Virus record (IMG/VR): IMGVR_UViG_3300000576_000011 | Coordinates: 1-33,169 of that record | Length of the DNA: 33,169 nucleotides | Strand: one strand, 5' to 3' | Source: a virus | Shown here: piece by piece, positions 3,807 to 31,096 of the stretch | Layout: every line of letters starts with the position of its first letter | Numbering within the stretch: position 1 is the stretch's first letter | Program-made: the position numbers and the translations under genes | Notes under the pieces: generated by a model | What the model saw: only the letters and a program-made list of their open reading frames with translations | The model's database searches: none | Told to the model about the DNA's origin: nothing

Positions 3807-4011
3807 CGATATTTTCCCCGATAAATTCCGCAATCTTAAGAGCTTCTGAACGTGTGAAGTGAATTTCCATTTCTTCACCTTTATCATTCCTGATATAAAA
3901 AACAACACGATCCTCTTCGAATGGCCGAATATCAATTTCCATTTCTTCTTCGCCATCATGATATGGCTTGGAAGCAACAGTCAACTTGGAAGAAGTTTGA
4001 AACTTATGCAT
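3796..4011 (-). CDS. Hypothetical acidic protein, 71 residues
   Basis: The start is set at MHKFQTSSKLTV (ATG 4011) with AGAGAAG upstream; a longer upstream frame is probably not translated. The product is rich in Glu and Asp, has a beta-strand pattern around RVVFYIRNDKGEEMEIHF, and ends in a helix (SEALKIAEFIGENIDEE). I recognise no family. Its last codons overlap the start of the kinase gene, implying coupling. Confidence 0.55.
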   Translation of the reverse strand: MHKFQTSSKLTVASKPYHDGEEEMEIDIRPFEEDRVVFYIRNDKGEEMEIHFTRSEALKIAEFIGENIDEE

Positions 4012-4036
4012 GATTTTTCTTCTCTTTAAATTATAA

Positions 4037-4270
4037 TCAACCAACTCGCCAAATACGGACGCCATCCTTGACTGTCCGAAGTGTATAGACCGTACCATAC
4101 TTACGCTGATAATATGCTGCCGTTGCAGACATATCCTTAGTGGTTTTTCCTGGTACAAGAAAAGAATCCTTGATCTTCATCTTGCGGAAAGGATACTTAG
4201 GCTGTCGACCTTTACTAGATTCAGTGAGTGAGGGCATGGGGATATTCTTTTCAATTTTATAGGCTGACAT
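4037..4270 (-). CDS. Small basic conserved phage protein, 77 residues
   Basis: The start is ATG 4270 (MSAYKIEKNIPMP) because AGGAGA precedes it; the upstream frame extension overlaps the promoter region. The sequence pattern is IEKNIPMPS, GRQPKYPFRKMKIKDSF and AAYYQRKYGTVYTLRTV. It resembles short basic proteins seen repeatedly in T4-like phages and looks like a nucleic-acid-binding module, but no function is established. It is the first gene of the leftward operon. Confidence 0.6.
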   Translation of the reverse strand: MSAYKIEKNIPMPSLTESSKGRQPKYPFRKMKIKDSFLVPGKTTKDMSATAAYYQRKYGTVYTLRTVKDGVRIWRVG

Positions 4271-4309
4271 GTTGAATTTTCTCCTGTGTTTGTGTTCAAC
4301 AGGAATAGT

Positions 4310-4703: not shown

Positions 4704-5975
4704 CGACCATTTTTGATCGTTTAAGTTCCAGTGAACTCATATTCCTGCTTCACTGAAGTCTGCCTGTCGGATTCTACGAATCCTTTAGGTCTTACATCTC
4801 CTCCACAGGCAAATCCCGTCGTTGCAACGGTTCTTTTATATTCATTTAACAAATTATTAGCAGCATTAGCATCTCGGTCCATGATAGAATCACAATTATC
4901 ACAACTAAATACTCGGTCAACTAGAGTCAAATCTTTCTTGATCCAACCACAACACGAGCAAGTTTTGGAAGATGGATACCAGCGAGATACTTTATGGACG
5001 ACAGAAACTTTTCTTGATAATGCTTGGACAAAACCGCACCATGATAACTTCTGTATAGCGCCTGATAATTTTCTGTTCTTTTTCATACCTTGAATATTCA
5101 GATCTTCCACTGAAACAACATCATACTGCTTGGCTATCGCTGATGATGTAGTTTCTATGAAGTTTTTATTTATCCTTCGGATCTTTCTATATTGTCTAGC
5201 AACTTTAATGCGAGCTTTATTTCGATTAGAACTTCCTTTCTGTTTTCTGGCATGTCTCTTCTGTAGTGTTTTTAATTTCTTGTATTCTTTACTTAAATCG
5301 GGTGATAAAATGCATTCACCATCACTTGTCACTGCAAATGTCTTGATGCCTAAGTCAATACCAACAGCATTATTTGCATCATAGTGAATTTCTTTTTCTG
5401 GTAACTCACAAAGAATAGACACGTACCAGCGATCTACGTCTTTACTTATAGTGAGTGACTTAACTTTACCTTCTAGCTTCCTGTGCATCTTACATGAAAC
5501 CCAACCTATTTTTGGTAACTTGATTTGGTTGGGTCTAATGATGAAGTGTTGCGGTACATTAAAGGATGGGCTAGAAGATCTTTTTGATTTGAACTTTGGA
5601 AATCCAGCCTGTTTCTTCCTGTTTTTACAAAATCTATTTTTGAAAGCAGCAGCAAGATTCATAGCTGATTGTTGGAGGGATTGGCTATTAATTTCTTTAA
5701 GGAAAGGGTATACATTTTTAAGTTCAACTAATTTATTAGTCAATGAATATCCAAGAATGAATTTACCAGAACTTTCATATTCTGCAATACTTGCTTCTAG
5801 TAGTTTATTATACACAAATCTGCAACATCCGACAGACTTTTCGAAGAATTCCTCTTGTTCTTCTGTAGGGTATAGTCTGAATTTAAACGCTTTATAAATA
5901 TTATTGCTGGACATTTGCTTTCTTTGTCTAGAGGTAATGGAGGTTAGGAGCTCGCGATTACCGTTTCATTTATAA
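4700..5975 (-). mobile_element. IS200/IS605-family element carrying only tnpB (boundaries approximate)
   Basis: The element consists of tnpB (5914..4721) and short ends. At the tnpB 3' side (right end) a 6-bp hairpin with an AAAAAT loop lies at 4703-4720. Upstream of tnpB (left end) GGTAAT/ATTACC arms at 5933-5938 and 5957-5962 form a subterminal hairpin, as IS605 left ends do. No tnpA is present, so it belongs to the IS1341-like, non-autonomous type. In this family an omega (re) RNA is made from the tnpB 3' end through the right end, with its guide taken from the flank. Here the guide would read the phage sequence just below 4700. The exact ends cannot be fixed without an empty site. Confidence 0.65.
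4721..5914 (-). CDS. tnpB: TnpB RNA-guided nuclease (IS605 OrfB)
   Basis: The 397 residues have the full TnpB layout. An N-terminal OrfB helix-turn-helix region (KAFKFRLYPTEEQ, VYNKLLEA) is followed by the RuvC parts GIDLGIKTFAV (D187), VSVEDLNIQGM (E270) and DRDANAANNLL (D346/D348). A zinc ribbon has CSCC at 319-322 and CDNC at 338-341. All three catalytic acids and four cysteines are present, so the nuclease is probably active. TnpB cuts DNA guided by omegaRNA next to a short motif matching the element's left flank, which favours retention and spread of the element. Plus-strand frames inside this gene are shadows. Confidence 0.92.
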   Translation of the reverse strand: MSSNNIYKAFKFRLYPTEEQEEFFEKSVGCCRFVYNKLLEASIAEYESSGKFILGYSLTNKLVELKNVYPFLKEINSQSLQQSAMNLAAAFKNRFCKNRKKQAGFPKFKSKRSSSPSFNVPQHFIIRPNQIKLPKIGWVSCKMHRKLEGKVKSLTISKDVDRWYVSILCELPEKEIHYDANNAVGIDLGIKTFAVTSDGECILSPDLSKEYKKLKTLQKRHARKQKGSSNRNKARIKVARQYRKIRRINKNFIETTSSAIAKQYDVVSVEDLNIQGMKKNRKLSGAIQKLSWCGFVQALSRKVSVVHKVSRWYPSSKTCSCCGWIKKDLTLVDRVFSCDNCDSIMDRDANAANNLLNEYKRTVATTGFACGGDVRPKGFVESDRQTSVKQEYEFTGT

Positions 5976-15161: not shown

Positions 15162-15629
15162 ATGGCAGATTCAACAGTAGTTACACGGAAACATATCCGG
15201 AGAGTTCAAGAACTTCTTCATGATACAGCAATTGTAGAACTTATGAAGAGATCACGACTACATGATCTATCTAAGTTTGAAGATGTAGAACGAGTTCCTC
15301 TGGATAAAATGCAAGAACTTATTGAAAAAGAAGGTCAAGCACAATTCGGTACACCGGAATACAAGAAAAGAACTGATCTACTTGGTGAAATGATCACACA
15401 TCACAGAGCTAATAATTCCCATCATCCTGAATACTATGAAGACGGTGTGAATGGTATGGACTTATTTGACGTCATGGAAATGTTTTTTGATTGGAAGGCC
15501 GCATCAGAACGTGGTGAAGACTCTTGTATGAGACTTGGTGCTGCATGTGACAAATATGAAATCGATCCACAACTTAGAAAGATCCTCTATAATACAGCTG
15601 AAAGACTAGGTTACAAGGCTGATGAATAA
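15162..15629 (+). CDS. DUF5662-like phage protein, HD-like His motif
   Basis: The 155 residues contain RSRLHDLSKF, EMITHHRANNSHHPEYYE and DVMEMFFDWKAASERGED. This pattern is typical of the DUF5662 proteins found in many phages and resembles a metal-binding HD-type helical fold. The conserved His and Asp residues suggest a hydrolase or metal site, but no activity is established. It lies 14 nt after the polymerase and is translated from AAAGGAG, so it is probably co-transcribed with the polymerase and uvsX. Confidence 0.68.
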   Translation: MADSTVVTRKHIRRVQELLHDTAIVELMKRSRLHDLSKFEDVERVPLDKMQELIEKEGQAQFGTPEYKKRTDLLGEMITHHRANNSHHPEYYEDGVNGMDLFDVMEMFFDWKAASERGEDSCMRLGAACDKYEIDPQLRKILYNTAERLGYKADE

Positions 15630-15686
15630 ATAGTACCGTGGAGTAGCTCTCTACATAAAATCAAACAGCAATAAAAAGGAAAATAA

Positions 15687-16601
15687 ATGTCCGCACTACT
15701 AGACAAACTAAAGAAGTCTGGGTCTATCAAACACGCATCTATCGTTGAAGATTCAGCATTTTTCAATTCCACAGAAAATGTAAAGACCGATTTACCTATT
15801 TTGAATTTAGCCTTTTCGGGTGATTTCAATAAAGGGTTTTCACCTGGTCTCACTTTCTTGGCCGGTGAATCAAAAAGCTTCAAGACACTTCTAGGTCTTT
15901 ACTGTATGAAAGCTTACCTTGACAAATATCCAGAAGGTATTTGTCTGTTCTATGATTCTGAATATGGCACGACTCCTGATTATCTAAAAACTAATGGTAT
16001 TGATACTTCTCGTGTCCTTCACGTTCCTATTGAGCATGTAGAGCAGTTGAAATTTGATATCGTGAAAAGACTTAAAGATCTAGAACGTGGTGATAAAGTA
16101 TTCATCTTCATTGATTCAATCGGTAACTTAGCATCAGTAAAAGAAGTTGAAGATGCTGAAAATGAAAAATCAGTTGCCGATATGTCTCGTGCTAAGGCAC
16201 TTAAATCTCTATTCAGAATTATTACTCCTTCACTCACAGCTAAAGAACTACCTTGTATAGCAATTAACCACATCTATAAAGAAATGGGTCTTTATCCAAA
16301 ATCTATCATGGGTGGCGGTTGTTTGGTAGAAAATACTGAAGTGCAAATGTATGACGGTAGTATGAAATTTATTCAAGATATTAAAGTTGGCGATTTAGTA
16401 AAAACTTTAGAAGGACCTAAATCTGTAGAACATACTTGGAATCCAGAAACTTTAGAAATTGGCGAACCAGAATGTTTTGAAATAGAATTTGAAGATGGTT
16501 ATACTGTAACTTGTTCTGATAATCACCCCTTTCTGACAGATAAAGGATGGGTTAAAGCTAAGGATCTCACAATAGATATGAATATTGTTTCAGCAGAGTA
16601 A
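15687..16601 (+). CDS. uvsX: UvsX recombinase N-half fused to split-intein N-fragment
   Basis: Residues 1-211 are the N-terminal part of a RecA/UvsX-type recombinase, with Walker A GESKSFKT (60-67, very close to T4 UvsX), Walker B VFIFIDSIG (138-146) and INHIYKEMG. After SIMGGG the protein runs into an intein N-fragment at Cys212 (TGT at 16320). This has block A CLVENTEVQMYDGSMKF and VGDLVKT, and block B CSDNHPFLT then GWVKAKDL, and stops after 93 intein residues. The break falls in the GG-(S/T)-G-MYSA motif equivalent to the RecA L2 DNA-binding loop, so the half is inactive alone. It needs the C-part at 17601 and trans-splicing. Confidence 0.92.
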   Translation: MSALLDKLKKSGSIKHASIVEDSAFFNSTENVKTDLPILNLAFSGDFNKGFSPGLTFLAGESKSFKTLLGLYCMKAYLDKYPEGICLFYDSEYGTTPDYLKTNGIDTSRVLHVPIEHVEQLKFDIVKRLKDLERGDKVFIFIDSIGNLASVKEVEDAENEKSVADMSRAKALKSLFRIITPSLTAKELPCIAINHIYKEMGLYPKSIMGGGCLVENTEVQMYDGSMKFIQDIKVGDLVKTLEGPKSVEHTWNPETLEIGEPECFEIEFEDGYTVTCSDNHPFLTDKGWVKAKDLTIDMNIVSAE

Positions 16602-16628
16602 ATAGTACCATAGTCAAAGTGCATTTTT

Positions 16629-16658
16629 AATAAATAATCCTATACTAAACTATAGGAG
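16629..16658 (+). promoter_or_regulatory. Late promoter plus RBS-hiding hairpin before the homing endonuclease
   Basis: AATAAATA (16629-16636) matches the late-promoter element. A 7-bp stem (16638-16644 with 16651-16657, 6-nt loop) pairs most of the AGGAG ribosome binding site (16654-16658) of the gene starting at 16666. By T4 late-promoter spacing transcription would begin near 16642. This removes the 5' arm and frees the ribosome binding site. Confidence 0.6.
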
Positions 16659-16665
16659 TTTAAAA

Positions 16666-17610
16666 ATGCACGTAGTCTATTTTATAACGTTTATTGATAG
16701 AAAAGATAATAACATCCAACCTTATTATTATATTGGATCAAAATCCAACTGCACTTTTGATGGATATAATATATTAGATAAAAAAGGTAAAATATATTAT
16801 GGTTCTAGTAACAGAAATGACTATCAAAAAATTGTTAGATCAGAAAAAATAAAAGTAGATATTTTATATGAAACAGAAAATTATGACGATTGTTTAAACC
16901 AAGAAAGAAATATACAACTACAAAATGACGTCGTAGTTGATACTCGTTTCTTTAATGCATCTTTGGCACTAGAAAATAATTTTCATAAACCTAATTATGG
17001 TACTTATAGACATATTGAAACTGGAAAGAAAGTACGATTAGAGAAAAATCATCCTAAAGTTTTAGATGGTACTTATATTAATATTAATAAAGGATATAAA
17101 ACATATAATAACGGCACTATACAAAAACAGTTTTTGAATGAAACAGATGTTCCTGAAGGTTGGACAAAAGGTGTTTTAGAAAAAAATAAACTTAAAGGTG
17201 AAAATAATCCATTTTATGGTAAAAAACATACTGAAAAAAGCAAAAAGAAAAATCGTGAGGGACAAGAAAATTTTAAAAAAAATAATCCTGAACTTTATGA
17301 TGAAATGATAGAAAAAAGACGTAAAAGAACTTCATTGACTTTTAAGGGTGTGCCTAAATCAGAAGAATCTAATAGAAAAAGAATTAGACGTAATTTAATA
17401 ATGTTAAAAAATATTCATACAGGTGAATGTGTGCGTGTAGATAAAAAATTCAAAGACGATTATGATTCTAATGTTTGGAAAAACCCTTATGCAGCAAAAA
17501 AACACCAAATGATAAAATGCCCTCATTGTGGTAAAATTAATGAATATAATTCATCTTTCAAAAGATGGCATTTTGATAAATGTAAAAAAAGGAAAATTGA
17601 ATGCGAATAA
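16666..17610 (+). CDS. GIY-YIG homing endonuclease inside the fractured uvsX gene
   Basis: The 314-residue protein has an N-terminal GIY-YIG nuclease domain (VVYFI at 3-7, PYYYIGSK at 19-26, KIYYGSS, and a Glu in NQERNIQLQ). It continues with NUMOD3-type DNA-binding repeats (NPFYGKKHTEKSKKK about residue 183, then a second KGVPKSEESNRKR) and a C-terminal CPHCGK...HFDKC zinc finger. The gene is much more AT-rich than uvsX. It is free-standing: the N-intein stops 64 nt before it, and it overlaps the C-intein start by 10 nt. It probably cuts intein-less uvsX alleles so that the cassette is copied in. No splicing domain is fused to it. Confidence 0.85.
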   Translation: MHVVYFITFIDRKDNNIQPYYYIGSKSNCTFDGYNILDKKGKIYYGSSNRNDYQKIVRSEKIKVDILYETENYDDCLNQERNIQLQNDVVVDTRFFNASLALENNFHKPNYGTYRHIETGKKVRLEKNHPKVLDGTYININKGYKTYNNGTIQKQFLNETDVPEGWTKGVLEKNKLKGENNPFYGKKHTEKSKKKNREGQENFKKNNPELYDEMIEKRRKRTSLTFKGVPKSEESNRKRIRRNLIMLKNIHTGECVRVDKKFKDDYDSNVWKNPYAAKKHQMIKCPHCGKINEYNSSFKRWHFDKCKKRKIECE

Positions 17611-18137
17611 ATTCTATAAAATCAGTAGGTAAAAAACCCGTATATGATATTACCGTGTCAAATATACATCATTATTTTTTAAAAAATGGTGTAGTTACAC
17701 ATAATTCCGGCGGAATGTATTCAGCGAATACTATCTTTTTCATCACTAAAGCACAAGAAAAAGATGGCACTGATCTGGCTGGTTATAAATTCACTATCAA
17801 TATTGAAAAATCACGATATGTCCGTGAAAAATCTAAGTTTCCATTTGTAGTCACTTATGAAAAAGGTATAGACAAATATTCCGGTCTCCTTGATTATGCT
17901 CTACAAGGTGAATTTGTTATTAAACCGTCTATGGGTTGGTACCAGAAAGTCGATCCGGATACTGGTGAAGTACTAGAAGGTAAGTACCGAGAAAAGGATA
18001 CTCACACTAAAGAATTCTGGGATATGTATCTAAGTAGTGATAAATTTCTTGATTATTGTTCATCGAGGGTTAAACTTGGTTCAGTGAAACTAGATAAAGA
18101 AGATCTAGTTGAAGAAACATTAAAAGAACTAGAATAA
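17601..18137 (+). CDS. uvsX: Split-intein C-fragment fused to UvsX recombinase C-half
   Basis: The first 35 residues are an intein C-fragment, with block F VYDITVSNIHHYFLKNG and block G VVTHN. They are followed directly by Ser (TCC at 17706), the +1 nucleophile. The remaining 143 residues continue UvsX: SGGMYSANTIFFITKAQ, KDGTDLAGYKFTINIEKSR and KSKFPFVVTYEKGID, all counterparts of T4 UvsX. Joining residues 1-211 of the first part to these gives a 354-residue recombinase with an intact GGGSGGMYSAN junction. It has its own ribosome binding site (AAAGGAAA, 8 nt upstream of the ATG), as a separately translated half requires. The start overlaps the endonuclease gene by 10 nt. Confidence 0.92.
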   Translation: MRINSIKSVGKKPVYDITVSNIHHYFLKNGVVTHNSGGMYSANTIFFITKAQEKDGTDLAGYKFTINIEKSRYVREKSKFPFVVTYEKGIDKYSGLLDYALQGEFVIKPSMGWYQKVDPDTGEVLEGKYREKDTHTKEFWDMYLSSDKFLDYCSSRVKLGSVKLDKEDLVEETLKELE

Positions 18138-27114: not shown

Positions 27115-28152
27115 GTGTCTGTTTGGATCGATCGTAAGTATGCGTCTATATTTGGAAATACATATCTAGAAAAATACACTGTCAAAAAAACCAGCCCATA
27201 TCTAGCGAATTTTCGATGTCCCGTCTGTGGTGACTCACAAAGTAATAAGAATAAAACTCGCGGATATTTCTATGAAATTGATAACAAGCTAAATGCAAAG
27301 TGTCATAACTGTGGATGGTCAACTACATTTTCATCTGCAATCCGACAGTTTGCACCTAATCTCTATGAAGAATATTCACTGGAAAATTTCCGTGAAAAAC
27401 AAGACTCTCCATTAATTTCTTCATATGAATCTGATATATCCAAGACTCCACTGAAGCGAATTGACAAATTTGAACCGTTCAAGAACCTTCAGAAAGTGTC
27501 ACAGCTACCGCATGATCACTATGCAAAAAAGTATATTGTGCAAAGATGCATACCACCGAAAGAACACTTTCGACTTTACTATACAAAAACCTTCTATAAA
27601 TGGGCTAACTCGATAGTCCCTGATAAATTTCCTGAATATTCCCTCAAAAACGATGAAGCCCGAATAGTTTTACCCTTTATCAATGAAAAGGGTTATGTAT
27701 TTGGTTTTTCTGGTCGAGCAATAAATAAGAATACTTCACTACGCTATGTGACAGTGATTTTTAACGAAACAGAGAATAAAATATTTGGACTAGATCGTAT
27801 TGATCGGTCAAAGGATATTATAGTCGTTGAAGGACAATTTGATGCACTATTTATAGACAATGCCGTTGCTCTTGCAGGATCTGATGGTAATCTAGACTAT
27901 ATTGCTAAAAAGAAAGATATGGTTATAGTACTAGATAATCAACCTAGGAACAGAGAATTAGTGTATAAACTAGAGCACTTAGTGTATAATGATTATCGCG
28001 TAGTAATATGGCCAAATACATTTCCATATAAAGATATAAATGAAGCAGTGATGGATAGGATTGAGCCTTTGATGATTGAAAAAATGATAAGAAATAATAC
28101 AGTTTCTGGTCTGGAAGCTCAGATTAGATTTAGTAATTGGAAGAAAATATAA
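27115..28152 (+). CDS. 61: DNA primase (T4 gp61-like), GTG start
   Basis: The GTG at 27115 is the start, with GGAGTG upstream. The 345 residues begin with VWIDRKYAS and a zinc ribbon (CPVC at 35-38, CHNC at 63-66, in the FRCPVCGDSQSNKNKTRGY context). This is almost the T4 gp61 pattern. A TOPRIM-like catalytic region follows (IIVVEGQFDALFID, ALAGSDGN, MVIVLDNQ). It makes RNA primers for lagging-strand synthesis with the helicase at 18220. Here the two genes are about 7.5 kb apart and under separate but similar promoters. Confidence 0.93.
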   Translation: MSVWIDRKYASIFGNTYLEKYTVKKTSPYLANFRCPVCGDSQSNKNKTRGYFYEIDNKLNAKCHNCGWSTTFSSAIRQFAPNLYEEYSLENFREKQDSPLISSYESDISKTPLKRIDKFEPFKNLQKVSQLPHDHYAKKYIVQRCIPPKEHFRLYYTKTFYKWANSIVPDKFPEYSLKNDEARIVLPFINEKGYVFGFSGRAINKNTSLRYVTVIFNETENKIFGLDRIDRSKDIIVVEGQFDALFIDNAVALAGSDGNLDYIAKKKDMVIVLDNQPRNRELVYKLEHLVYNDYRVVIWPNTFPYKDINEAVMDRIEPLMIEKMIRNNTVSGLEAQIRFSNWKKI

Positions 28153-28166
28153 CAGAAGGTATACAA

Positions 28167-29414
28167 ATGCACGCCGTAAAGTTTGTTCTAAAAAGAAATG
28201 GTAATACAGAATATTTTGATCCAGATAAAATCAAAGCTGCTGTTGAAAAAGCAATGCGTTCCACTAAAATCAAAAGTAAATCATTAGCACAAGAAATTAC
28301 ACAAGGTGTTCTAGAAAAACTAGAAGAAAAAAATGAATCTCTAGTAGAAGTAGATAATATTCATAAATTAGTTGAAAATACTATTATGGACATGGGTCTA
28401 CATAATTTGGCTCGTGAATATATTGTTTATCGTTTCTCTAATATGCCAGATATTTTTCGAAAACGGACAAACTTAAAACCATACGAATATCCACAACTTG
28501 TTGAATATGTTGAAGCTATCAGACATTCTTATTGGATACACACCGAATTCAATTATTCATCTGATATTCAGGATATGAAAGTTAGAATGACTCCAGAGGA
28601 AGTAGAAATTGTAAAGAAAGCGATGCTTGCAATTTCACAAATTGAAGTACAAGTAAAAACCTTCTGGGCTAAAATTGGTGATAAACTACAAAAACCAGAA
28701 GTTCAAGCTGTCGGTGTAACTTTTGGAGAATCAGAAGTACGACATGCAGATGCTTATTCTAATCTTATCGAAATCATGGGACTAAACAAAGAATTTGAAG
28801 AATTAGTGGAAGTTCCAGCTATCAAAAAGCGTATAGCATATTTAGAACAAGCAATACAAGCACCAGTAGATAATAAAGATTATTTCCATCGTATCATATT
28901 ATTTTCTATGTTTGTTGAAAATGTATCCTTATTTTCACAGTTTTTAATAATGATGGCTTTTAATAAACATAAAAATATGCTCAAAGGTATTTCTAATGCA
29001 GTAGAAGCGACTTCCAAAGAAGAAGATATTCATGCTAGATTTGGCTTTGATCTAGTTAATATTATCAAAAAAGAAAATCCAGATTGGTGGGATAAAGATA
29101 CTATTACAGAAGTTAACAGGTTATGCCGCGACGCTTACAAAGCAGAAGCTGCTATTGTAGATTGGATTTATGGTGATGCAGACTTAGATTTTTTACCTAA
29201 AGAAACAGTTAAAGATTTTCTTAAACATAGATTCAATCAATCATTACAAGCTATTGATATGAAACCCATCTATGAAGTAAGTGACAAAAGTATTACGGAT
29301 ACTGACTGGTTTGTTGAAGAAATTCTTAGTACTAAGAATATAGACTTTTTTGTAAAAAGAAGTACTGCATATTCAAAGAAAACAAAAGCTTTCACTGAGG
29401 ATGACTTATTTTAG
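28167..29414 (+). CDS. nrdB: Ribonucleotide reductase small subunit NrdB with N-terminal ATP-cone
   Basis: The start is ATG 28167 with AGAAGG upstream; a TTG frame extension is ignored. Residues 1-95 are an ATP-cone (VKFVLKRNGNTEYFDPDKI, VEVDNIHKLVENTIMDMG, AREYIVYRF), normally found on the large subunit. The rest is the R2 ferritin-like domain. Its metal ligands are E160 (SQIEVQVKTFW), E190 and H193 in EVRH, E251 (VENVSLFSQF), and E286 and H289. The radical tyrosine is Y197. It makes the radical for the NrdA encoded next. ATP-cones on NrdB are uncommon and put allosteric activity control on the radical subunit. Confidence 0.92.
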   Translation: MHAVKFVLKRNGNTEYFDPDKIKAAVEKAMRSTKIKSKSLAQEITQGVLEKLEEKNESLVEVDNIHKLVENTIMDMGLHNLAREYIVYRFSNMPDIFRKRTNLKPYEYPQLVEYVEAIRHSYWIHTEFNYSSDIQDMKVRMTPEEVEIVKKAMLAISQIEVQVKTFWAKIGDKLQKPEVQAVGVTFGESEVRHADAYSNLIEIMGLNKEFEELVEVPAIKKRIAYLEQAIQAPVDNKDYFHRIILFSMFVENVSLFSQFLIMMAFNKHKNMLKGISNAVEATSKEEDIHARFGFDLVNIIKKENPDWWDKDTITEVNRLCRDAYKAEAAIVDWIYGDADLDFLPKETVKDFLKHRFNQSLQAIDMKPIYEVSDKSITDTDWFVEEILSTKNIDFFVKRSTAYSKKTKAFTEDDLF

Positions 29415-29431
29415 TAAAAAGGAACACAATA

Positions 29432-31096
29432 ATGGAAAAATTTTACTGGTTGAATGATGAATCACGGAAATTTCTATCTAGAGGATATTTAAATGAAAAT
29501 GAAAAACCTGAAGATAGAATTCGTGAAATTGCTGATACAGCCGAAAAGTATCTTGGTATAGAAGGTTATGGTGATAAATTTTACGAATATGCTAGTCGTG
29601 GTTACTATTCTTTTTCTTCTCCTGTTTGGGCTAATTATGGTAAGGCACGAGGTCTACCAGTATCATGTTTTGGCTCTTATATAGATGATAATATGGAAAG
29701 TATTCTTTATGGTGTTGCCGAAAATGGTATGCTAATGAAAAATGGTGGAGGAACTTCGGGTTATTTTGGCGCTTTAAGAGGCCGAGGAGCAACTATTACT
29801 AATTCAGGTGAATCATCTGGAGCAGCCCATTTTCTTCAACTATATGATACTCTAGCTTCTGTAGTATCACAAGGTTCTGTTCGGAGAGGATTCTTTTCTG
29901 GATATATTGATATCGATCATCCTGATGCAGATGAATTTCTCGATATTGGTACTGAAGGTAATCCCATTCAGGGACTTACTACAGGCATATGTGTTTCAGA
30001 TGAATTCATTAATGATATGAAGAATGGTAACAAAGAAAATCGTAGGTTATGGGCTAAAGTTCTTCAAAGACGTTCAGAAATTGGTTTCCCTTATATACTT
30101 TACACAGGAAATGTGAATAATAATAAACCTAAAGTATATAAAGATCATAATCTTCCTATCTATGCATCGAATATGTGTGCAGAAATAGCACTACCGTCTT
30201 CTAATACTGAAACATTCACTTGTGTTCTATCATCTATTAATGTTCTTCATTGGGATGAAATTATTCAAACTGATGCTATTGAAGTGATGACTCAATTTCT
30301 TGATACCGTTGTTACTGAATTTATTAATAAAACAGAAAATAAACCTTATTTAGAAAGAGCAAGAGAATTTGCTATTAATCACCGTGCAATTGGTGTTGGT
30401 ATTCTCGGTTGGCATTCTTATCTACAATCTAATATGATTGCATTTGAATCATCTGAAGCTGCTATGAAGAATCTTGAAATTAGTAAAATTTTAAGAGAAA
30501 GGACACATAATGCATCAAAAGAACTTGCTGTTACTCATGGTGAACCACCACTGTTGAAGGGTTATGGTATGAGAAACACCACTACTATGGCTATTGCTCC
30601 AACTAAAAGTTCTAGTTTTATTCTTGGCCAAGTAAGCCAGTCAATTGAACCTGAATTTTCTAATTGTTATGTGAAAGATTTGGCTAAGACAAAAGTTACT
30701 ATCAAAAATCCATATTTGATGAAGATTCTTGAACAGAAAGGAAAAAATTCACCAGAAGTGTGGGATTCAATCAAGATGTATGATGGTTCGGTTCAACATC
30801 TTGATTTTCTGGACGAAAAAGAAAAGAATGTTTTCAAGACATTTTTTGAAATCAATCCATATACTATTATTGATCATGCAGCAGTTAGGCAAAAATATAT
30901 TGATCAAGGGCAAAGTCTTAACTTAATGCTTGATCCAGATATGTCTGTTAAAGATATTAATTCATTATATCTATATGCATGGGAAAATGGTGTGAAATCA
31001 CTTTATTACAGTTTTTCAATGTCGAAAGCACAGTCTTTGACTAGAAAGAAATTTGTCGGTGATATGTCAGAAGGGTGTGCTTCATGTGAGGCATAA
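29432..31096 (+). CDS. nrdA: Ribonucleotide reductase large subunit NrdA (no ATP-cone)
   Basis: The 554 residues form a short class I large subunit. Active-site Cys79 (PVSCFGSYI), N247-x-C249-x-E251 in NMCAEIALPS, Cys264 (TFTCVLSSIN) and a Tyr-Tyr pair in KSLYYSFSMS are all present. The C-terminal CASC (549-552) is the redox pair recharged by a glutaredoxin, and one is encoded at 32491. The usual N-terminal ATP-cone is missing and is found instead on NrdB. Gene order is nrdB-nrdA with an 18-nt gap. Activity should be complete. Confidence 0.95.
   Translation: MEKFYWLNDESRKFLSRGYLNENEKPEDRIREIADTAEKYLGIEGYGDKFYEYASRGYYSFSSPVWANYGKARGLPVSCFGSYIDDNMESILYGVAENGMLMKNGGGTSGYFGALRGRGATITNSGESSGAAHFLQLYDTLASVVSQGSVRRGFFSGYIDIDHPDADEFLDIGTEGNPIQGLTTGICVSDEFINDMKNGNKENRRLWAKVLQRRSEIGFPYILYTGNVNNNKPKVYKDHNLPIYASNMCAEIALPSSNTETFTCVLSSINVLHWDEIIQTDAIEVMTQFLDTVVTEFINKTENKPYLERAREFAINHRAIGVGILGWHSYLQSNMIAFESSEAAMKNLEISKILRERTHNASKELAVTHGEPPLLKGYGMRNTTTMAIAPTKSSSFILGQVSQSIEPEFSNCYVKDLAKTKVTIKNPYLMKILEQKGKNSPEVWDSIKMYDGSVQHLDFLDEKEKNVFKTFFEINPYTIIDHAAVRQKYIDQGQSLNLMLDPDMSVKDINSLYLYAWENGVKSLYYSFSMSKAQSLTRKKFVGDMSEGCASCEA

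What the first reader, a model, noticed from the sequence alone, without database searches (positions are those of the whole stretch)
15687..18137. Fractured uvsX: split intein with a GIY-YIG homing endonuclease between the two halves
UvsX is encoded as two separate polypeptides. The N-half ends in GGG followed by an intein N-fragment (Cys1, block A, block B) that stops after 93 residues. About 1 kb later a 35-residue intein C-fragment (blocks F and G, ending HN) is followed by Ser+1 and the C-half. All splicing residues are present, and the joined product restores the GG-S-G-MYSA motif of the DNA-binding L2-like loop, so neither half should work alone. Fractured genes with split inteins are known from environmental phage data (for example gp41-1, NrdJ-1 and IMPDH-1). 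Here the host protein is the recombinase itself and the linked nuclease is GIY-YIG with NUMOD3 repeats and a zinc finger. The recombinase needed for homing is thus the gene invaded. The 93/35 split is close to gp41-1 (88/37), so it may be an efficient trans-splicer.
Basis: partly seen in the sequence, partly recalled or inferred. Interest (0 to 1): 0.92.

Follow-up and report, generated by a model that had tools for sequence, protein, structure and literature searches.

The report
Split-intein fractured phage recombinase gene
This phage makes its DNA-repair protein UvsX in two pieces that self-splicing protein tails should join, with a selfish DNA-cutting gene between them; the same insertion recurs in many phages, including ones that infect laboratory E. 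coli, so it can be tested directly.

Summary
uvsX is two ORFs: UvsX 1-211 plus a 93-aa intein N-fragment, then a 35-aa intein C-fragment plus 143 aa of UvsX. A 314-aa nuclease gene with its own start lies between. All splicing residues are present. It is not an artefact: 87 distinct inserts occupy exactly the same codon junction in other phages, with Cys1 in 87/87, terminal HN in 85/87 and Thr/Ser+1 in 87/87. Cultured T4-family phages carry it, two of them growing on E. coli K-12. Near-isogenic occupied/empty pairs, and nearly identical inserts in genomes only 67-79% identical, show a mobile element. Best reading: trans-splicing rebuilds UvsX while a linked homing endonuclease spreads the insert. 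"Fractured genes" are a known kind. No held paper reports UvsX, but the founding paper could not be read.

The parts
15687..16319 (+). UvsX N-extein, residues 1-211, ending SIMGGG at the predicted L2 DNA-binding loop
   Evidence: RecA E 1.6e-7; phrog_97 UvsX-like; solved UvsX-type recombinase 3io5 E 3.7e-65, aligned through residue 211.
16320..16598 (+). Intein N-fragment, 93 aa, Cys1 plus blocks A and B (SDNH); stop codon 16599-16601
   Evidence: TIGR01445; 24-sequence alignment; net charge -13.
16599..16665 (+). Nuclease leader: RNA hairpin burying the Shine-Dalgarno (16654-16658) and the start codon
   Evidence: dG -22.5, z -5.1, no shuffle as good; family median z -4.3.
16629..16636 (+). 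AATAAATA, one mismatch from the T4-type late promoter element TATAAATA, inside the hairpin
   Evidence: exact TATAAATA in 31 of 48 leaders of the family. For the window itself a single imperfect match proves nothing alone.
16666..17610 (+). Homing-type endonuclease gene, 314 aa, divergent GIY-YIG domain plus NUMOD3 and C-terminal CxxC...H...C tail
   Evidence: (I-TevI DNA-binding domain 1i3j E 4.8e-4).
17179..17595 (+). Part of the nuclease gene encoding the DNA-binding tail shared with HNH nucleases at the same site in other phages
   Evidence: hhalign 130 columns, 43% identity, probability 99.9.
17601..17705 (+). Intein C-fragment, 35 aa, blocks F and G ending HN; start codon overlaps the end of the nuclease gene
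   Evidence: TIGR01443 E 4.3e-7; net charge +4.
17706..18137 (+). UvsX C-extein, 143 aa, starting Ser+1 (SGGMYSAN), with stop codon
   Evidence: T4_UVSX_C E 3e-13; gap of 0 at the same junction in intact alleles.

Best explanation
A mobile split-intein element has fractured uvsX at the L2 DNA-binding loop. UvsX-N::IntN and IntC::UvsX-C are translated separately, the oppositely charged intein halves associate, and Cys1, the penultimate His, Asn35 and Ser+1 carry out protein trans-splicing to restore a 354-aa UvsX (inferred; not assayed). The nuclease encoded between the halves is made mainly late (inferred from its leader). It recognises the uninterrupted uvsX junction through a C-terminal tail (inferred), cuts it in co-infecting phages, and is copied in with the intein by recombination that itself uses UvsX. 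Mobility at this site is shown by comparative genomics; which step the nuclease performs is inferred.
For: Splicing residues: Cys1 87/87, HN 85/87, Thr/Ser+1 87/87. Purifying selection: median dN/dS IntN 0.29, IntC 0.25, nuclease 0.39, extein 0.22. Hint fold: contiguous relative modelled at pLDDT 92.8, best solved match gp41-1 split intein 6qaz. Exact site in every locus, empty alleles with gap 0. Precise mobility: L088 vs L115, 1,396-bp insert with 99.2/98.8% flanks; phage HY03 vs NIC06P2, 97.1/97.6% flanks with about 1.3 kb inserted. Horizontal transfer: intein N-parts 97-100% identical between genomes 67-79% identical beside them. Occupancy changes at least 21 times on the uvsX tree, at least 12 forced by well-supported branches. 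Nuclease-site link: the leader resembles only the segment -6..+30 of the insertion site over 36 loci, p<2.5e-5, in GIY and HNH classes alike. Leader switch; precedent in PMC2988022.
Against: No splicing, cleavage or homing was measured. The window's own leader shows no operator-like match (rank 146 of 149) and only an imperfect late-promoter element. The window is a 33-kb fragment, so an intact uvsX elsewhere in its genome is not excluded. The standard Pfam GIY-YIG model is not hit, and the solved I-TevI catalytic domain is only a weak fold match (E 2.7).
Confidence: 0.9

Rival explanations
1. The two UvsX halves work as a non-covalent complex, without splicing, as reported for split NrdA of phage Aeh1 and split gene 43 of Aeromonas phage 25.
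For: Such split phage enzymes exist (PMC2988022).
Against: The splicing residues would not need to be kept: Cys1 is in 87/87 and HN in 85/87 inserts, intein dN/dS is below 0.3, and the break lies in the predicted DNA-binding loop.
Confidence: 0.05
2. The intein trans-splices, but the nuclease is a passenger that does not target this site; the insert spreads by ordinary homologous recombination between related phages.
For: About 14 of 82 fractured inserts have lost or decayed the nuclease and persist. In the window no operator-like match is seen.
Against: Nuclease under purifying selection (0.39). Over the family the leader mimics exactly the insertion site. Near-identical inteins sit in genomes too diverged for easy random exchange of just this segment.
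Confidence: 0.15
3. RNA-level splicing (group I intron) or ribosome bypassing joins the halves.
For: Homing nucleases of this type also live in group I introns of T4-like phages (PMC2988022).
Against: No intron in the Rfam scan. The flanking coding sequence is a complete, conserved intein with its own stop and start codons, and 51 of 82 fractured inserts are not a multiple of three.
Confidence: 0.02
4. Sequencing or assembly error or a decayed pseudogene.
For: The window is a metagenomic contig fragment.
Against: Same architecture in many independent contigs and cultured genomes; low dN/dS of all parts.
Confidence: 0.01

Closest known systems
Fractured genes with split inteins (Dassa et al. 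2009, NAR 37:2560; cited in PMC10448857 and PMC6892783, text not held)
   Same: An enzyme gene broken by a split intein with a free-standing endonuclease gene between the halves; mainly phage DNA enzymes (from my own knowledge of the abstract).
   Different: Half of those loci carried Vsr-like nucleases (own knowledge). Here the host is UvsX and most nucleases are GIY-YIG-like or HNH; two relatives (L082, L181) carry a restriction-fold-like nuclease. Whether UvsX was among their eight enzyme types could not be checked.
gp41-1 split intein (PDB 6qaz)
   Same: Closest solved relative by sequence (E 1.9e-13) and fold; similar total length and N/C proportions.
   Different: Only about 24% identical to the modelled relative; different host gene.
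PolB split intein with HNH nuclease of Pseudomonas phage MIJ3 (PMC6892783)
   Same: Split intein with a separate homing nuclease ORF in a phage replication gene.
   Different: Other host gene; no family-wide exchange or leader analysis in the passages read.
SegA of phage T4 (PMC2988022)
   Same: GIY-YIG homing enzyme that cuts uvsX; its gene lies beside uvsX.
   Different: Free-standing next to an intact uvsX, no intein; no significant pairwise similarity to the window nuclease and only weak profile similarity (56% probability).
I-TevI and its early-off hairpin, late promoter and operator (PMC2988022)
   Same: Hairpin hiding the ribosome site, late promoter in the leader, operator resembling the homing site; NUMOD3-region similarity to 1i3j.
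   Different: I-TevI lives in a group I intron; here the same logic is seen in a split-intein nuclease and with two unrelated catalytic domains.

Membership tests
Split intein (Hint, class 1) | N-terminal Cys1 with blocks A and B | tested here: met
   Cys1 in 87/87; block B reads SxxH, with Ser66 and His69 invariant in 24 aligned sequences.
Split intein (Hint, class 1) | C-terminal blocks F and G, HN, nucleophile at +1 | tested here: met
   HN then Ser+1 in the window.
Split intein (Hint, class 1) | Hint fold | tested here: met
   on the contiguous relative L172 (pLDDT 92.8; gp41-1 E 2.2e-9). Not modelled for the window's two fragments.
Split intein (Hint, class 1) | Halves on separate polypeptides with opposite charge | tested here: met
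   separate ORFs; IntN -13, IntC +4.
Split intein (Hint, class 1) | Protein trans-splicing activity | not testable with these tools
   Needs co-expression or proteomics.
Fractured gene | Conserved enzyme gene broken at one codon by a split intein, with a separate endonuclease ORF in between | tested here: met
GIY-YIG homing endonuclease | Match to the standard Pfam GIY-YIG domain model | tested here: not met
   the standard model is absent; only one of 14 relatives hits SegE_GIY-YIG (E 3.8e-4). The name is therefore used here only as 'GIY-YIG-like'.
GIY-YIG homing endonuclease | Catalytic motif (YIG, Arg, Glu, Asn) and fold shared with Seg enzymes | tested here: met
   Y22, G24, S25, R12, E80, N97 invariant and I23 nearly so; model matches SegG and GIY-YIG phage nucleases (best E 6e-21); solved I-TevI domain only weakly.
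GIY-YIG homing endonuclease | Cuts the intein-less allele near the insertion site | not testable with these tools
   Indirect support only: leader mimics the site across the family.
UvsX/RecA recombinase | RecA core and T4 UvsX C-terminal domain across the two halves | tested here: met

The most novel reading that the evidence does not exclude
The uvsX L2-loop site is a long-lived docking site where unrelated nuclease catalytic domains swap onto one DNA-binding tail. That tail both finds the empty uvsX site and represses its own late promoter through an operator copied from that site. The fracture is reversible (nuclease deletion re-fuses the intein), and in one lineage it is stacked, so UvsX must be spliced from three polypeptides around an 11-residue middle segment.
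Probability: 0.5. Interest if true: 0.78.

Novelty: new variant of a known kind. Interest (0 to 1): 0.64.

Why it matters
The element sits in the gene whose product carries out the recombination that copies it, so a bad insertion or a slow splice would block its own spread. It gives a natural series: empty, fractured with GIY-like, HNH or other nuclease, decayed, re-fused, and stacked. That makes open questions on how split inteins arise and whether they are reversible directly testable. Phages ELT1 and SYGD1 carry it and grow on E. coli K-12 MG1655, and close relatives carry intact uvsX, so splicing and homing can be tested in a standard laboratory system. It also adds many natural split inteins as tools and flags a common misannotation: the halves are deposited as two recombinases, as hypothetical proteins, and once as a portal protein.

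Tried and rejected
Group I intron between the halves: rejected, no Rfam hit beyond two tRNAs. Frameshifted ordinary intein: rejected, because of separate starts and stops and 51 of 82 fractured inserts not divisible by three. The 11-mer TAAATAGTACC before uvsX and after IntN (15627, 16599): left unexplained. SegA of T4 as direct ancestor of the window nuclease: no pairwise match, weak profile match. General enrichment of TATAAATA in the window: none, 6 seen against 4.6 expected, so the promoter claim rests on the family leaders. A first operator test against shuffled leaders was too loose and was replaced by comparisons with other uvsX segments and a circular-shift test. Klebsiella phages that aligned over residues 1-271: the one fetched, ValerieMcCarty04, has an intact uvsX. 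Dassa et al. 2009 is not in the library, so novelty against it is unresolved.

Full report
1. Observation. The window encodes UvsX in two ORFs. ORF 15687-16601 holds UvsX 1-211, ending SIMGGG, followed without a break by a 93-residue intein N-fragment starting at Cys1. ORF 17601-18137 begins with a 35-residue intein C-fragment ending HN and continues SGGMYSAN..., 143 residues of UvsX. Between them, in another frame and with its own ribosome site, ORF 16666-17610 encodes a 314-residue nuclease; its end overlaps the start of the C-fragment. Profile matches agree with each part. The solved recombinase 3io5 aligns through residue 211, so the break lies at the glycine-rich segment before MYSA, taken here as the L2 DNA-binding loop from knowledge of RecA.

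2. Not an artefact. Searches of cultured phages and viral contigs found the same arrangement many times. I collected 159 loci with 87 distinct insert sequences, all at the same codon junction; alleles without the intein show a gap of exactly 0 there. Cys1 is present in 87/87, HN in 85/87 (two have SN), Thr or Ser at +1 in 87/87; the window is the only Ser. Cultured carriers include Yersinia TG1, Proteus PM2 and Pm5461, Pseudomonas PspYZU05, Shewanella Thanatos-1, Vibrio vB_VmeM-32 and EniLVp02, Enterobacter UFV01, Salmonella CF-SP2 and SEA1, and the T4-genus phages HY03, ELT1 and SYGD1. None of the annotations seen calls it a split intein; one note mentions a HintC domain and one C-half is called a portal protein.

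3. What the insert looks like elsewhere. Of 87 distinct inserts, 31 have an HNH nuclease with the shared tail, 32 a GIY-like nuclease, 2 a restriction-fold-like nuclease (L082, L181), 1 a Seg-like nuclease (Thanatos-1), 16 no nuclease recognised by my queries (at least L199, and by its length probably L193, carry other ORFs), and 5 are contiguous in-frame mini-inteins. The GIY-like and HNH proteins share a C-terminal tail: 130 columns, 43% identity, hhalign probability 99.9, while their N-terminal catalytic domains do not align. Shuffling of such DNA-binding modules is known in general (own knowledge); here it occurs at one site in one intein family.

4. Mobility. Near-isogenic pairs differ by the insert: L088 and L115 are 99.2% and 98.8% identical on the two sides; HY03 and NIC06P2 97.1% and 97.6%. 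L330 and L340 are 96.5% identical over 5.1 kb up to the exact insertion point and 83% beyond. Conversely, L186 and L190 have 100% identical intein ends with flanks 78-79% identical, and several pairs resemble this. On a FastTree of uvsX exteins occupancy changes at least 21 times, at least 12 forced by well-supported branches.

5. The fracture can heal. L172 is contiguous, yet its intein DNA is nearly identical to that of fractured L186, L170, L180 and L184. It lacks exactly the stretch from the IntN stop codon to the IntC ribosome site, which it still carries as in-frame codons (...SVEYEEIMKIKS...). L012 and L168 also keep an internal Met where the C-fragment would start. At least for L172 the direction was fractured to contiguous.

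6. Control of the nuclease. In the window the 67-nt leader folds with the start codon and Shine-Dalgarno in stems (dG -22.5 kcal/mol, z -5.1, no shuffle as good), and an AATAAATA lies inside the hairpin. Over 48 distinct leaders, 31 contain exact TATAAATA (1.8 expected) and 41 have fold z below -2; 80 leaders of uvsX itself have median z 0.16 and no TATAAATA. This is the arrangement described for I-TevI, SegB and MobE, in which early transcripts hide the ribosome site and late transcripts free it (PMC2988022).

7. What the nuclease targets. I-TevI also represses itself at an operator resembling its homing site (PMC2988022). I compared each leader with 149 segments of its own rejoined uvsX. Averaged over 36 non-redundant loci, the best segment is -6 to +30 around the insertion site (mean z 1.47; best elsewhere 0.49; no circular shift in 40,000 exceeded 0.96; p<2.5e-5). 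It persists with promoter and ribosome sites masked, and each nuclease class peaks there. The simplest reading is an operator that mimics the homing site. It is not visible in the window (rank 146 of 149), so for the window this is inference from relatives.

8. Mechanism. Shown: anatomy, conservation of splicing residues, purifying selection, Hint fold of a contiguous relative, exact-site mobility. Inferred: trans-splicing in vivo, cutting of the empty site, late expression, operator function. Since UvsX is the phage recombinase used in homing (PMC2988022), the element parasitises the gene it needs.

9. Known or new. The general kind, fractured genes with split inteins and homing nucleases, is known (Dassa et al. 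2009, not held; MIJ3 PolB, PMC6892783). Searches of the held library found no report of a UvsX split intein, but the library is incomplete. I file it as a new variant of that kind because of the host gene, the interchangeable nuclease domains, the T4-type leader switch with site-mimicking operator, and the re-fused and stacked forms.

Noticed in passing
L139 1900-5868 (same contig as L218 and L330): uvsX is fractured twice: a second, different split intein sits about 11 residues before the window-type site, so the middle polypeptide (3860-4285) is IntC1, an 11-residue extein SMFPTAVISGG, then IntN2. UvsX would have to be spliced from three polypeptides. The one paper search made on this brought up no natural case.
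   Followed up: partly
L340 3041-5576: Close relative of the L139 phage with only the first of those two split inteins; the window-type site is empty, giving a stepwise pair.
   Followed up: partly
L330 7073-9617 and L219 1559-4174: In the same phage the gp41 helicase is also fractured: a 16-aa N-fragment (CVHPDTKIRIRKKRRN), an HNH-like nuclease gene on the opposite strand, then a C-fragment of about 131 aa ending HN before the Walker A TGAGKT; a further IntN follows DIDLTNTSE. At least four split inteins lie in two adjacent genes.
   Followed up: partly
L172 4001-4420: Contiguous mini-intein that is a healed fracture: the nuclease is deleted and the old ribosome site and Met are kept as codons inside the intein.
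   Followed up: yes
L208 1978-3252 and L217: Inteins ending SN instead of HN, the only exceptions among 87; may splice differently or be decaying.
   Followed up: no
L199 4327 onward and L139 2841-3863: Another type of nuclease ORF (TFKLMIKTHNITGLKYLC / MSLPIYRLMIKTHNITGLKYLC) serves at both uvsX intein sites in different phages.
   Followed up: no
window 15627-15637 and 16599-16609: Exact repeat TAAATAGTACC just before uvsX and immediately after the IntN reading frame; unexplained.
   Followed up: partly
window 4721-5914 (minus strand): Gene matching a phage transposase family (phrog_506, E 4e-115).
   Followed up: no
window 28137-29414: Ribonucleotide reductase small subunit with an N-terminal stretch (15-102) that resembles the N-terminus of the anaerobic NrdD family, perhaps an ATP-cone, next to a short large subunit at 29432-31096.
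   Followed up: no
L347 (CAKZJX010000007.1): A relative of this intein sits in a contig binned as an Anaerolineae genome; likely a phage contig in the bin.
   Followed up: no
L126 4981-5935 and L129 4875-5403: In cultured phages TG1 and vB_VmeM-32 the nuclease ORF is broken or truncated while the intein halves remain intact.
   Followed up: partly
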